Positions 27,710 to 48,961 of a stretch of 64,000 nucleotides of DNA are shown here, in pieces (position 1 is the first letter of the stretch; every line of letters starts with the position of its first letter). A model generated the notes under the pieces. The model worked only from the letters and a program-made list of their open reading frames with translations, was not told where the DNA came from and did no database searches. The position numbers and the translations under genes are program-made. Origin of the DNA: Spirochaetaceae bacterium (GTDB taxonomy: Bacteria > Spirochaetota > Spirochaetia > SZUA-6 > Bin103); the NCBI GenBank assembly GCA_028821475.1, contig JAPPGB010000105.1, positions 1 to 64,000 of the forward strand, read 5' to 3'.

Positions 27710-27880
27710 CGCGCAGACTCTATGCCACCGCCGCCGGTGCGTCGACCCGCATCCGCCGGCCGGTGCCGCCGCTGCCGGGCACACTCCGGCCCCGACAACT
27801 CCGGCACCCGCATCGCGCCTTCCCCGCGCCTTCACCGAGTGTCGCTTGCCGGTGCGGGGCTGCCCCGCTATGGTCGGAAG

Positions 27881-29200
27881 ATGCAGCGGCAGGGCGTCGG
27901 TGCGGTCCCCGCGTTGTCGGCGTGCCGCCCGGAACAGGTTGGCATGGCGGGCGATCTCGGCGATCGCCTCGCCGGCGCGGCGCGGCGGCTCATTGCCGGC
28001 CTGCAGCTTGCCGGCGCGGTGACGGTGGTCGCCCGCGCCGGCAAGATCGTGCACTTGCAGGCCCATGGAACGATGGACATCGCGCGCGAGCGGCCGATGG
28101 CGGACGACACCATCTTCCGCATCTACTCAATGACCAAGGCGGTGGGTACGGTGGCGGCGATGCTGCTGTGCGAGGCGGGCAAGCTGGAGCTGGATGCGCC
28201 GGCCGCGGACTACCTGCCGGCGCTCGGCCGGATGCGGGTAGCCTGGTCCGAAGAGGTCGGCGGCCGGGCGATGCCTGGGCATCGGCCTTCATCGTCTTCC
28301 GTGTCACCGAGTGACCGCACACACCCCGAGCGAGCCACCGGCAAGGCGGGCGCGGCGCCGCGGCGCGCCATGACGGTGCGCGACCTGCTGCGCCACACCT
28401 CCGGGCTGCCCGGCAACGTGGCCGTGAACGACCGCTTCCGGGCAACCGGCCTGCCGCCGCTCGCCGAGTGCACGCTGGAGGAGATCGGCGATCACCTCGA
28501 CCGGGTTCCCCTGCTCTATCATCCCGGCAGCCGGTGGTACTACAGCGTCGCGGCCGACGTGGTGGGGCGCCTGGTGGAGGTGGCGTCGGGGCAGCGGTTC
28601 GACGAGTTCCTGCAGCAGCGCATCTTCGCGCCGCTCGGCATGGTGGACACTGACTTCTTCTGCCCGCCGCACAAGGCCGACCGGCTCGCCGAGATGTACG
28701 GGCCCGACCCGGCCGGCGGCATCATGCCGGTGGACGCTCCGCAGGGCGGCACCGTGTCCAGCTTCAGCTTCCGGGAGCGCCCGCGCTTCCTGTCCTGCGG
28801 CGGCGGCCTGGTGTCCACCGCGCACGACTACGTGCGCTTCTGCCTGATGCTGTCGGGCAACGGAACGCTCGGCGGCGTGCCGCTGCTGCAACCGGCAACC
28901 GTCGCGAGGATGACCCGCAACCAGCTCCCCGCCACGCTGCTTCCGATCCGCAAGGCACCGCAGGAGCGCTACGACGGGCTGGGCTTCGGACTCGGCTTCT
29001 CGGTGCGCGTGGCGCCGTCCGGCTTCGTGCCCGGCGCGGAGGTCGGCGAGTACGGCTGGATCGGCGGCGCGAGCACCGAGTTCACGGTCTCCCCCCGTTC
29101 CGGGCTGGTGATCATCACCCTCACCCAGTTCATGCCGTTTTCGCCACTCAGCCGGATGGTGAAGACGATCGTCTACGACGCGCTCGAGGAGGACACGTAA
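27881..29200 (+). CDS. Serine hydrolase, beta-lactamase/class C (EstB-like) family, carrying an inserted repeat
   Basis: The product (about 439 aa) has the Ser-x-x-Lys motif SMTK (about residue 84), a Tyr-x-Ser/Asn-type motif YYSVAADVVG and a late GG-containing strand (WIGGASTEF). TVRDLLRHTSGLPG is a strong family hallmark. Between AWSEEV and MTVRDLL there is an extra stretch of about 25 residues that coincides with one copy of a dispersed ~80-bp repeat (28240-28318) found again at 47690-47770; the reading frame stays open through it. Activity is probably esterase- or peptidase-like rather than beta-lactam resistance. The gene ends 2 bases before the sulfatase ATG, so the two are likely cotranscribed. 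Confidence 0.87.
   Translation: MQRQGVGAVPALSACRPEQVGMAGDLGDRLAGAARRLIAGLQLAGAVTVVARAGKIVHLQAHGTMDIARERPMADDTIFRIYSMTKAVGTVAAMLLCEAGKLELDAPAADYLPALGRMRVAWSEEVGGRAMPGHRPSSSSVSPSDRTHPERATGKAGAAPRRAMTVRDLLRHTSGLPGNVAVNDRFRATGLPPLAECTLEEIGDHLDRVPLLYHPGSRWYYSVAADVVGRLVEVASGQRFDEFLQQRIFAPLGMVDTDFFCPPHKADRLAEMYGPDPAGGIMPVDAPQGGTVSSFSFRERPRFLSCGGGLVSTAHDYVRFCLMLSGNGTLGGVPLLQPATVARMTRNQLPATLLPIRKAPQERYDGLGFGLGFSVRVAPSGFVPGAEVGEYGWIGGASTEFTVSPRSGLVIITLTQFMPFSPLSRMVKTIVYDALEEDT
28240..28318 (+). repeat. Dispersed two-hairpin repeat, copy 1 (inside the serine-hydrolase gene)
   Basis: The core 28268-28318 matches 47720-47770 at 44 of 51 positions by hand count, with weaker similarity and identical spacing extending left to about 28240. 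It contains two inverted repeats: GATGCC-TG-GGCATC (28270-28283) and GTCAC-CGA-GTGAC (28303-28315). This copy is read through in frame by the hydrolase gene, where it adds a Ser-rich segment absent from the family consensus. Confidence 0.75.
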
Positions 29201-46725: not shown

Positions 46726-47661
46726 CTACGCCAGGAGCACCAGGATCACGCCGGCCACCGCCAGCATGGTTGCGGCCAGGGTCATGGCACCGGGCGGTTC
46801 GCGCAGCAGCAGGGCACTCAGGGGGGCGGCGTACAGCGGCGCCGTGGCGCCGACGATGGCCGTGAAGGTGGCGCCCGCCAGCTTGATCGACTCCACGTAG
46901 AGCATTCCCACCACCACCCAGCCCAGCAGGCCGCCCAGGACCAGCAGCCACAGCGTGCGGCGGTCGCTGAGCACCCGCTCGGCGGCATCCAGCGCCCCGG
47001 GACGCCGCAGCGCCACGCTGAGCGACAGCAGTGCCGCGATCGGCACGCGCACGGCATTCACGGCCAGGGTGGTCATGCCCTCGGCGGCCTTGGCGGTCAG
47101 AATCACCTCCAGGCCCCAAACCGCCGCCGTGATCGTGGCCAGCAGCAGCCCGATCCTGCGCTTGCGCCGCGCAACATCCGGTACGGGGGCTTGCGTTCCG
47201 TCCGCCGCGGTCCTCGGCGCTGCCCGCGGCCGGCGCTCCGGGAGCGACAGCAGCGCCCCCGCCGCGACCACCAGCAGGGCGCCGAACATCGCCAGCAGCG
47301 GCGGCGCGTCTCCCAACAGGAGAAACCCGAACAGCATCGTGAATATCGGGAAGCTGCAGACCACCGGCACGGTACGCGCGACGCCCACCAAGCGCAGCGC
47401 CACCACGCTGCACGTGTCGCCGACCAGCCCGCCTACCACGATGGCCGCCACGATCAGCAGAACGCGCTCGGGGGTGAAGGTCGACGCCCCCGGTGCTCCC
47501 GCGGCCAGGAACCAGACCACGATCACCGCCGCTCCCAGCAGCGCACGCAGCCCGTTGAGCACGAACGGGTCCAGCCGCTGCGAAAGATGGCGCAACACGA
47601 CGCTGGTGGCGCTCCAGCACACGGCGTGCGCGAAGGCGATGAAGACGCCCACGGCGATCAT
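46726..47661 (-). CDS. EamA/DMT superfamily transporter
   Basis: The product (311 aa) has ten hydrophobic helices in two five-helix EamA repeats, split by a polar basic linker (VPDVARRKRRIGLLLA, about residue 165). It starts MIAVGVFIAFAHAVCWSATS, a typical DMT N-terminus. Such proteins export amino acids, purines or other metabolites. ATG 47661 is preferred because the upstream frame extension runs through the dispersed ~80-bp repeat and has no family features. Neighbours are tail to tail with DM13 and divergent from the 2TM coiled-coil gene. Confidence 0.87.
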   Translation of the reverse strand: MIAVGVFIAFAHAVCWSATSVVLRHLSQRLDPFVLNGLRALLGAAVIVVWFLAAGAPGASTFTPERVLLIVAAIVVGGLVGDTCSVVALRLVGVARTVPVVCSFPIFTMLFGFLLLGDAPPLLAMFGALLVVAAGALLSLPERRPRAAPRTAADGTQAPVPDVARRKRRIGLLLATITAAVWGLEVILTAKAAEGMTTLAVNAVRVPIAALLSLSVALRRPGALDAAERVLSDRRTLWLLVLGGLLGWVVVGMLYVESIKLAGATFTAIVGATAPLYAAPLSALLLREPPGAMTLAATMLAVAGVILVLLA

Positions 47662-47689: not shown

Positions 47690-47770
47690 AGCCCTTGGTC
47701 CGCAGAAGCCTGCCGGCAAGCGATGCTTGGGTATCGGTTTTCATCGTCTTCCCTGTCACGGAGTGACCGA
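47690..47770 (+). repeat. Dispersed two-hairpin repeat, copy 2 (intergenic)
   Basis: The core 47720-47770 is 44/51 identical to 28268-28318 by hand count, with weaker similarity leftwards to 47690. Both inverted repeats are kept: GATGCT-TG-GGTATC pairs when G-U wobbles are allowed, and GTCAC-GGA-GTGAC is retained with only the loop changed. It lies in the intergenic region between the EamA gene and the divergent 2TM gene, where it could affect either transcript. Confidence 0.75.
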
Positions 47771-47809
47771 ACCGACTCGTCACATGTTAGTATGATGATC
47801 ACAGGAACC

Positions 47810-48961
47810 ATGGGCAGGCAACCTAACGAGCCGGAAGAGCGCCCGGCGGCGAAAGGCCCGTTGCGCCAGCGGCTGGCAGGTTTTGTGCACCGGTGCCGCG
47901 CGCGGGCGGAGAGCGCCAAGTCCGCACTGACCGTGCACGGCGTCACCTACGCCGCCGTCAACGCCGGGCTCCTGCTGGTAAACCTGCTCACGTCACCTCG
48001 CTTTCTGTGGTTCCTGTTTCCGCTCGCCGCCTGGGGAATCGGGTTGCTGCACCACCATACCGAGGCCCGCGTCCGGGCGCGGGAGGCGCGCGAGGCCGCG
48101 GCGCTCCCACCGCTCACCAAGCGCGCGCTGCAGCGGGTTCGCAAGCTGTTCGCCGTTCGCCGCCGCCTGCGCCACCACCTCACCACGGCCGCGGGGCTGT
48201 CGGCGTTCCTGATCGGGCTCAACGTCCTCCTTACGCCGAGGGACGGCCCGTGGGCAATTATCCCGATTGTCCTGGCGCTCGGCCCTCCCCTTGCCATTCA
48301 CTACGCCGTGGCGCGCTCGCGGAGCCGGCGCCTGCGCCGCGAGTTGGCCGACGACGGATTGGACCTCGACTCGGCGGTTGCCGACTTGGCGACGCTCCCG
48401 GTGGACGACGCCGAGGTGCTGCTCTCCGATGCACCGCTGCTGGCGGAGGCGGCGGAACTGCGCGAGGCGATCCTCGCCGATCTGCAAGGCGGCGGGGCGG
48501 ACGCGGATCGCTGGCGCACGGAGCTGCAGCCGGAGCTCGACACCTATACGCGCCACATCGGCGCGCTGCTGCAGGCGCGCCGCGAGCTGGAACGCGCCGG
48601 CGCACGCGTATCCGCGGCGGAAATCACCGAGGAACTCGCCGTCCTGAACGGCAAGCTGGATGAAGCCACCTCCGCCGAGTTGCGCCGCGAATACCAAACG
48701 GCGGTGGCGCAGTACGAGGGGCAGCTCAAGTCGCTCCAGGATCTGCAGGAACGCATCGAAATGACCGATCTGCGTGCCAAGTCCGCGATACTGGCGCTGC
48801 GCCAACTCTCGCTCGACATTCCACGCCTGCGCGCCGCCCCCGCCGGTGAGCCGGCCGCCCTGGTATCGCTGCGCGGCAAGTCGCAGGAGTTGACCCGCTA
48901 CCTCGAAGACCTGCGCGCCGGCCACCGGGAACTCGACGACGCCGCGGTCCGCGCACCGTAG
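47810..48961 (+). CDS. 2TM-domain membrane protein with C-terminal coiled coil
   Basis: The product (383 aa) contains two pairs of membrane helices: YAAVNAGLLLVNLL with FLWFLFPLAAWGIGLLHHH, then LTTAAGLSAFLIGLNVLL with AIIPIVLALGPPLAIHYAV. The FLWFLFPLAAWGIGL segment matches the '2TM domain' family. A long cytoplasmic region rich in Leu, Glu and Ala follows (about residues 200-375), predicted as a coiled coil. Function unknown; similar proteins carry kinase or response-regulator partners, none of which is here. ATG 47810 has AGGA a few bases upstream; two nearby upstream ATGs (47792, 47795) are possible. A TATGAT at 47791 could serve as a -10 box. Confidence 0.78.
   Translation: MGRQPNEPEERPAAKGPLRQRLAGFVHRCRARAESAKSALTVHGVTYAAVNAGLLLVNLLTSPRFLWFLFPLAAWGIGLLHHHTEARVRAREAREAAALPPLTKRALQRVRKLFAVRRRLRHHLTTAAGLSAFLIGLNVLLTPRDGPWAIIPIVLALGPPLAIHYAVARSRSRRLRRELADDGLDLDSAVADLATLPVDDAEVLLSDAPLLAEAAELREAILADLQGGGADADRWRTELQPELDTYTRHIGALLQARRELERAGARVSAAEITEELAVLNGKLDEATSAELRREYQTAVAQYEGQLKSLQDLQERIEMTDLRAKSAILALRQLSLDIPRLRAAPAGEPAALVSLRGKSQELTRYLEDLRAGHRELDDAAVRAP

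What the first reader, a model, noticed from the sequence alone, without database searches (positions are those of the whole stretch)
28240..28318. Dispersed ~80-bp two-hairpin repeat that recurs 19 kb away, here inside a coding gene
28268-28318 and 47720-47770 agree at 44 of 51 bases, with similarity and constant spacing extending left. Both stems are kept, the first through G-U-type changes and the second with only a loop change, which suggests a selected nucleic-acid structure (REP/MITE-like or small RNA-like). Copy 1 lies in frame in a serine-hydrolase gene. I have not seen it described.
Basis: seen in the sequence. Interest (0 to 1): 0.75.

Follow-up and report, generated by a model that had tools for sequence, protein, structure and literature searches.

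The report
81-bp transposase-free mobile DNA repeat
The repeat is one of about 90 copies of an 81-base mobile DNA element, apparently undescribed, that has spread through this spirochaete-like bacterium's genome, usually beside genes but sometimes inside one, where it adds 27 amino acids without breaking the reading frame.

Summary
The two window copies (28243-28323 and 47695-47775) belong to a family with about 90 matches in the 5.7-Mb genome. A same-genus genome (G002) has about 18 and a same-family genome (G003) one. None were found in the rest of the order or in other sampled class members.

Comparison with G002 shows the element is a precise 81-bp (27-codon) insertion. There is no target duplication and no terminal inverted repeat. 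It lies immediately 5' of a pre-existing CTCA-like tetranucleotide, i.e. 3' of TGAG on the other strand. Copy 1 is an in-frame insertion in a serine hydrolase; a second in-frame case is in another gene. Many copies follow a neighbouring gene's TGA stop codon. The four copies shared with G002 are degenerate, while the intact copies tested are species-specific, so the element has moved repeatedly.

Both hairpins show modest covariation. Overall folding is ordinary, and no Rfam family matches.

Best reading: a non-autonomous, transposase-free mobile repeat that works like a PATE, an IS200/IS605-type miniature. Membership is unproven: no Y1 transposase was detected in its family, so the mobilising enzyme is unknown. 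New member of a known kind.

The parts
28243..28323 (+). Copy 1: 81-bp mobile element inserted in frame (27 codons) in the serine-hydrolase gene
   Evidence: CM hit 92.2 bits; same-genus ortholog L210 lacks an 81-bp stretch here
28269..28284 (+). Hairpin 1 of copy 1: CGATGC-CTGG-GCATCG
   Evidence: sequence; covariation over 106 copies, 16 double-changed cells against 5.8 shuffled
28303..28315 (+). Hairpin 2 of copy 1: GTCAC-CGA-GTGAC
   Evidence: sequence; covariation, 13 double-changed cells against 4.9 shuffled
28324..28328 (+). Target-site bases after copy 1 (CCCCG; family consensus CTCAT); part of the flank, not of the element
   Evidence: CCCCGAG is present at the empty site in G002
27860..29200 (+). 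Beta-lactamase-fold serine hydrolase gene holding copy 1 (start codon approximate)
   Evidence: Pfam PF00144 E=1.2e-62; orthologs in G002 and G001
47695..47775 (+). Copy 2: 81-bp mobile element in the intergenic region between divergent genes
   Evidence: CM hit 99.1 bits
47721..47736 (+). Hairpin 1 of copy 2: CGATGC-TTGG-GTATCG, one G-T pair
   Evidence: sequence; flagged as terminator-like by a simple scan
47755..47767 (+). Hairpin 2 of copy 2: GTCAC-GGA-GTGAC
   Evidence: sequence
47776..47780 (+). Target-site bases after copy 2 (CTCGT)
   Evidence: sequence; family target CTC conserved at model positions 82-84
46726..47661 (-). EamA-family transporter gene to the left of copy 2 (start approximate)
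   Evidence: Pfam PF00892 E=8.5e-35
47810..48961 (+). 2TM-domain protein gene to the right of copy 2
   Evidence: Pfam PF13239 E=8.6e-15

Best explanation
This is a non-autonomous mobile DNA element of 81 bp, consensus CTGGTCCGAAAAAGCCGGCCGGCGGGCGATGCTTGGGCATCGGTTTTCATCGTCTTCCATGTCACGGAGTGACCGTACAGA. Shown: it inserts as an exact 81-bp unit immediately 5' of a pre-existing CTCA-like tetranucleotide (3' of TGAG on the other strand), with no target-site duplication and no terminal inverted repeats. It has done so repeatedly in one bacterial genus, before and after G000 and G002 separated. Shown: because 81 is 27 codons and four of its six frames are open, it can sit inside a gene as a 27-residue insertion, as in copy 1. 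Inferred: it is moved in trans by an enzyme that recognises its hairpins as single-stranded DNA and cuts next to a short target, as IS200/IS605 elements do (a PATE-like miniature); I give this enzyme type about 0.45. Inferred: its frequent position right after a TGA stop codon reflects the TGAG target plus selection for harmless sites.
For: About 90 copies. Two-sided empty sites in a sister species at C114:39536, C140:33085 and C128:21469; consistent 81-bp gains at C102:78801, C12:10870 and copy 1. A paralogous empty site in the same genome: L143 reads GGGCTGC^CTCGCACC where L135, L151 and L188 hold the element. CTCA retained at the right edge of the empty sites at C72:10758, C30:84957 and C79:18159. 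Target logo: C 53/57, T 49/57, C 53/57, A 36/57. The four copies shared by both species all score low, 32-51 bits; the tested species-specific ones score 81-107. Hairpin covariation. Stop codon of the right-hand antisense gene at the junction in about 11 of 34 cases.
Against: No Y1 (IS200/IS605) transposase was found in G000 to G003. No longer element with the same ends was found. Hairpin 1 lies 26 nt from one end, and the left-terminal hairpin shows no covariation. Overall folding is not unusually stable. There is also a weak target preference on the other side (TTNC), which IS200/IS605 elements are not known to need (own knowledge).
Confidence: 0.85

Rival explanations
1. The element is mobilised by an IS110-family (DEDD, bridge-RNA-guided) recombinase. 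The shared dinucleotide CT, at the element's first two bases and directly after it, would be the crossover core, and TTGC-CT-CAT the target.
For: Element starts CT and is followed by CT (82-83: C 53/57, T 49/57), with target preference on both sides of the junction. IS110 transposase genes occur in G000 (1) and G002 (3) but not in G003, in step with element presence though not with copy number. No TSD.
Against: No significant similarity between the element and the sequences around the IS110 genes. A few sites have TT or TC, not CT, at the junction. 81 bp is too short for a known complete bridge RNA unit (own knowledge).
Confidence: 0.15
2. Rolling-circle (Y2 HUH, IS91-like) mobilisation: a hairpin 8 nt from the 3' end and a fixed 3'-flanking tetranucleotide would be the origin end.
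For: Hairpin 2 ends 8 nt from the right end, and the strong target preference lies on that side. No TSD, no TIR.
Against: Not tested: no genome search for Y2 transposases was left in the budget. The left end is also exact, unlike one-ended products.
Confidence: 0.15
3. A conserved structured RNA or regulatory leader placed by selection, not a mobile element.
For: Covariation in two stems and a conserved unpaired TTCATCGTCTTCC. G-T pairs exceed A-C mismatches in stems (59 against 33 in the top 80).
Against: Exact empty sites and lineage-specific insertions. Orientation to genes is mixed. In-frame coding copies. No Rfam match. RNA fold energies equal shuffles.
Confidence: 0.04

Closest known systems
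PATEs (palindrome-associated transposable elements) of Haloquadratum walsbyi (PMC3119063)
   Same: No terminal inverted repeats, no target duplication, too short for a transposase, subterminal palindromes, a 4-5-bp target next to one end, divergent copies, many per genome.
   Different: Here no IS605-type transposon with matching ends and no Y1 transposase was found; bacterial host; only one palindrome is truly near-terminal.
REP sequences / TnpA-REP (RAYT) systems (PMC6006769, PMC3733652)
   Same: Short hairpin-bearing repeats, many copies, mostly between genes, thought to move as single-stranded DNA.
   Different: 81 bp, not 21-65; no GT[AG]G guide at a hairpin foot; no RAYT detected in the genome.
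Rickettsia palindromic elements (RPE; PMC10969869)
   Same: Small mobile repeats found in frame inside unrelated protein genes, encoding an inserted peptide.
   Different: RPEs are about 150 bp and often coding; here only a few clear in-gene cases, read in more than one frame and strand.
Classical prokaryotic MITEs (e.g. RUP, ERIC; PMC10969869)
   Same: Non-autonomous, moved in trans, high copy number.
   Different: No TIR and no TSD.
IS605-type free-standing stem loops in Borrelia plasmids (PMC2775950)
   Same: Transposase-free stem loops next to genes in a spirochaete, with G-U-type changes.
   Different: No sequence relation shown; here an exact insertion unit is demonstrated.

Membership tests
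PATE / IS200-IS605 derivative | No terminal inverted repeats | tested here: met
   Ends CTGGTCCG... and ...GTACAGA are not inverted copies of each other
PATE / IS200-IS605 derivative | No target-site duplication, exact insertion next to a short target | tested here: met
   Exact 81-bp gains 5' of CTCA-like bases
PATE / IS200-IS605 derivative | Palindromes close to both termini | tested here: inconclusive
   Hairpin 2 is 8 nt from one end with covariation; the left-end hairpin has none; hairpin 1 is 26 nt in
PATE / IS200-IS605 derivative | Ends shared with an IS605-type transposon, or a Y1 transposase present | tested here: not met
   PF01797 not found in G000-G003; no larger element with these ends
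REP | GT[AG]G tetranucleotide at hairpin foot | tested here: not met
   Bases before hairpins 1 and 2 are not GTAG/GTGG on either strand of the consensus
REP | RAYT (TnpA-REP, PF01797) in genome | tested here: not met
   0 matches in a 95.7% complete genome, positive controls ring
Classical MITE | Terminal inverted repeats and TSD | tested here: not met
RPE-like intragenic element | In-frame insertion in genes, absent from orthologs | tested here: met
   Serine hydrolase and an ORF of at least 1095 aa; a minority of copies
IS110 non-autonomous derivative | Shared CT core at both junctions | tested here: inconclusive
   Mostly CT, some TT or TC
IS110 non-autonomous derivative | Ends matching a resident IS110 element | tested here: inconclusive
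   No significant match around the four IS110 genes, but the true ends of those IS110 elements were not mapped
IS91-like rolling-circle derivative | Y2 transposase in genome | not tested
Known structured RNA | Match to an Rfam family | tested here: not met
   No match at E<=1 in five loci

The most novel reading that the evidence does not exclude
The element belongs to a new class of very small mobile DNA, exactly 27 codons long, open in four frames, moved by an enzyme that is not a Y1, RAYT or other known IS transposase, with a TGAG target that steers it to stop codons and lets it lengthen proteins in frame.
Probability: 0.12. Interest if true: 0.7.

Novelty: new member of a known kind. Interest (0 to 1): 0.42.

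Why it matters
It is a clean case of a sub-100-bp mobile element with exact empty sites in a sister species, no target duplication, no detected Y1 transposase and a target that overlaps stop codons. It makes testable how such elements move, and shows proteins gaining a 27-residue segment without frameshift. It also warns annotators: the repeat reads as protein in several frames and will create false conserved peptides.

Tried and rejected
Rfam search gave nothing. Y1 transposase search: none in the family. Searches for a larger parent element by its ends gave only truncated copies, contig-end fragments and degenerate relatives. Sequences around IS110 genes showed no similarity. Plasmids and phages: no match. 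Viral contigs: no match and one chance hit in a collagen-like repeat. Genome contigs pattern: none, but own records may be left out. A multicopy HNH-endonuclease gene near several copies was considered as the mobiliser and rejected: the element sits in its upstream region at a site that is empty in another copy. Left-terminal hairpin and an alternative long helix: no or weak covariation. GC-skew orientation bias: marginal (mean -0.009). Structure prediction of the hydrolase with its 27-residue insert was not run; it would not have decided the question.

Full report
Observation. BLAST within the window joins 28244-28320 and 47696-47772 at 80.5% identity, E=1.2e-15. The whole genome (G000, 5.73 Mb, 183 contigs, window = contig C105) holds many more. 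There are 40 BLAST matches, 42 matches to a 32-base pattern with up to three mismatches against none for the reversed pattern, and 91 covariance-model matches at E<=0.001. Some are contig-end fragments or lie in duplicated segments, so 'about 90 copies' is approximate.

Anatomy. Alignment of the copies gives a unit with sharp ends, consensus CTGGTCCGAAAAAGCCGGCCGGCGGGCGATGCTTGGGCATCGGTTTTCATCGTCTTCCATGTCACGGAGTGACCGTACAGA, 81 bp, followed by CTCA(T). Hairpin 1 is CGATGC-NNGG-GCATCG and hairpin 2 is GTCAC-GGA-GTGAC. Window copies: 28243-28323 and 47695-47775. Median identity to consensus over 106 aligned copies is 83%, best 95%.

Insertion proof. The ortholog of the window's serine hydrolase (PF00144) in the same-genus genome G002 is contiguous where G000 has 81 extra bases. 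Joined flanks of 20 other copies were searched in G002, G001 and G003. Empty sites were found, for example C140:33085 (G002 GAGCAGCA^CTCAGCC; G000 AAGCAACA-[81 bp]-CTCAGCC) and C114:39536 (CTCA^CTCA), with consistent 81-bp gains at C128:21469, C102:78801 and C12:10870. At the well-aligned sites the bases after the element are already in the empty site, so they are target, not element, and no base is duplicated or lost; at C128:21469, C102:78801 and C12:10870 the target differs by one or two bases between the species. One-sided comparisons at C72:10758, C30:84957 and C79:18159 show the same CTCA. A paralogous empty site exists in G000 itself, upstream of a multicopy HNH-endonuclease gene (L143 against L135, L151 and L188).

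Target. Flank statistics over 57 copies: C 53, T 49, C 53, A 36, T 27 at the five positions after the element, and a weaker T/A, T/A, N, C before it. On the other strand the element therefore follows (A)TGAG. In 30 copies where an antisense gene lies directly to the right, its frame puts a TGA stop at the junction in 17 cases (frames -1, -2, -0 = 17, 11, 2; counted). With called genes, 11 of 34 end within the last five model positions. Inference: TGAG at a stop codon is a harmless target, so insertions there survive.

Coding copies. 81 is 27 codons and the consensus is open in four of six frames (read from the sequence). Copy 1 adds 27 residues to the hydrolase. A second clear case is C102:78801, in an ORF of at least 1095 aa: EIAVYSWLGKPEE-SVRSLRDLEDDESRHPSITRRPAFSGKG-TDYTGVDWILG against G002 EIAVYSWLGTPEKDTEYTGVDWILG. 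C36:22223 is a probable third. Most copies are intergenic by a home-made gene finder, whose start codons are approximate.

Age and spread. Four copies are at orthologous positions in G000 and G002 (C72:1347 with L230; C75:22345, C48:621 and C88:18319 with L122, L123, L128); all are degenerate, 32-51 bits. The tested species-specific copies score 81-107 bits. So the family amplified before and after the two species parted. G002 has about 18 copies, G003 (same family) one, G001 none; the other 22 genomes of the order give none at E<=0.001, and BLAST found none in 35 further class members. Plasmid and phage collections are empty. The nearest named relative of a neighbouring gene product is Spirochaetaceae bacterium bin103, 77% identity, so the host is probably a Spirochaetaceae-like bacterium.

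Structure. Over 105 distinct copies hairpin 1 has 16 double-changed cells against 5.8 in shuffles and hairpin 2 13 against 4.9, none of 500 shuffles reaching the value. The shuffle control does not correct for relatedness. A left-terminal hairpin has no such support. A longer hairpin-2 alternative has some. Total folding energy is ordinary as DNA (z about -0.9 to -1.6) and as RNA (z about -0.7 to 0.4). In stems, G-T exceeds A-C among the top 80 copies (59 against 33), which leans towards the element strand being the folded one, but only weakly.

Mechanism. Exact insertion next to a short one-sided target without TSD or TIR, with subterminal hairpins, works like IS200/IS605 elements and their transposase-free PATEs (PMC3119063, PMC6006769). 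But no Y1 transposase was detected in any of the four genomes of the family, although it is found in 13 of 26 genomes of the order, and no larger element has these ends. IS110 transposases occur in G000 (1) and G002 (3), not in G003, and the CT at both junctions would suit an IS110 core, but the sequences around those genes do not resemble the element. IS91-type enzymes were not tested. I put about 0.45 on an HUH single-strand mechanism of Y1 type acting from a lost or unassembled source, 0.15 each on IS110 and IS91, and the rest on something else. The 0.85 confidence attaches to 'non-autonomous mobile element with this insertion behaviour', not to the enzyme.

Verdict. The interpretation 'REP/MITE-like' is right in kind; 'small RNA-like' is not supported. 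The family itself was not found described in the papers searched, which cover only open-licence papers.

Noticed in passing
L135:167-2263 (-), also L138, L143, L151, L188, L196, L202: A multicopy HNH-endonuclease gene (PF01844) with an internally repetitive, variable middle part, often near contig ends; several copies lie near the 81-bp element.
   Followed up: partly
L364:2931-4283 (-): IS110-family transposase gene on a short 4.45-kb contig of the same genome; one relative in G002 is 92% identical over 1.38 kb.
   Followed up: partly
L195:1, L136:3, L316 end, L317 end: Contigs of the assembly end inside copies of the element, so some copies are truncated by assembly.
   Followed up: no
L367:2059-2228: Two overlapping near-identical copies of an 89-bp stretch (95.5%), a short tandem repeat in G002.
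   Followed up: no
L142, L146, L149, L158, L170, L171, L180, L205: Many related gene copies (about 76-93% identity over 0.2-1.9 kb) near copies of the element, an expanded family not identified here.
   Followed up: no
L181 (C30:84957): A copy of the element with a small internal tandem duplication in hairpin 2 (GTCACGGAGAAGTCACGGAGTGAC).
   Followed up: no
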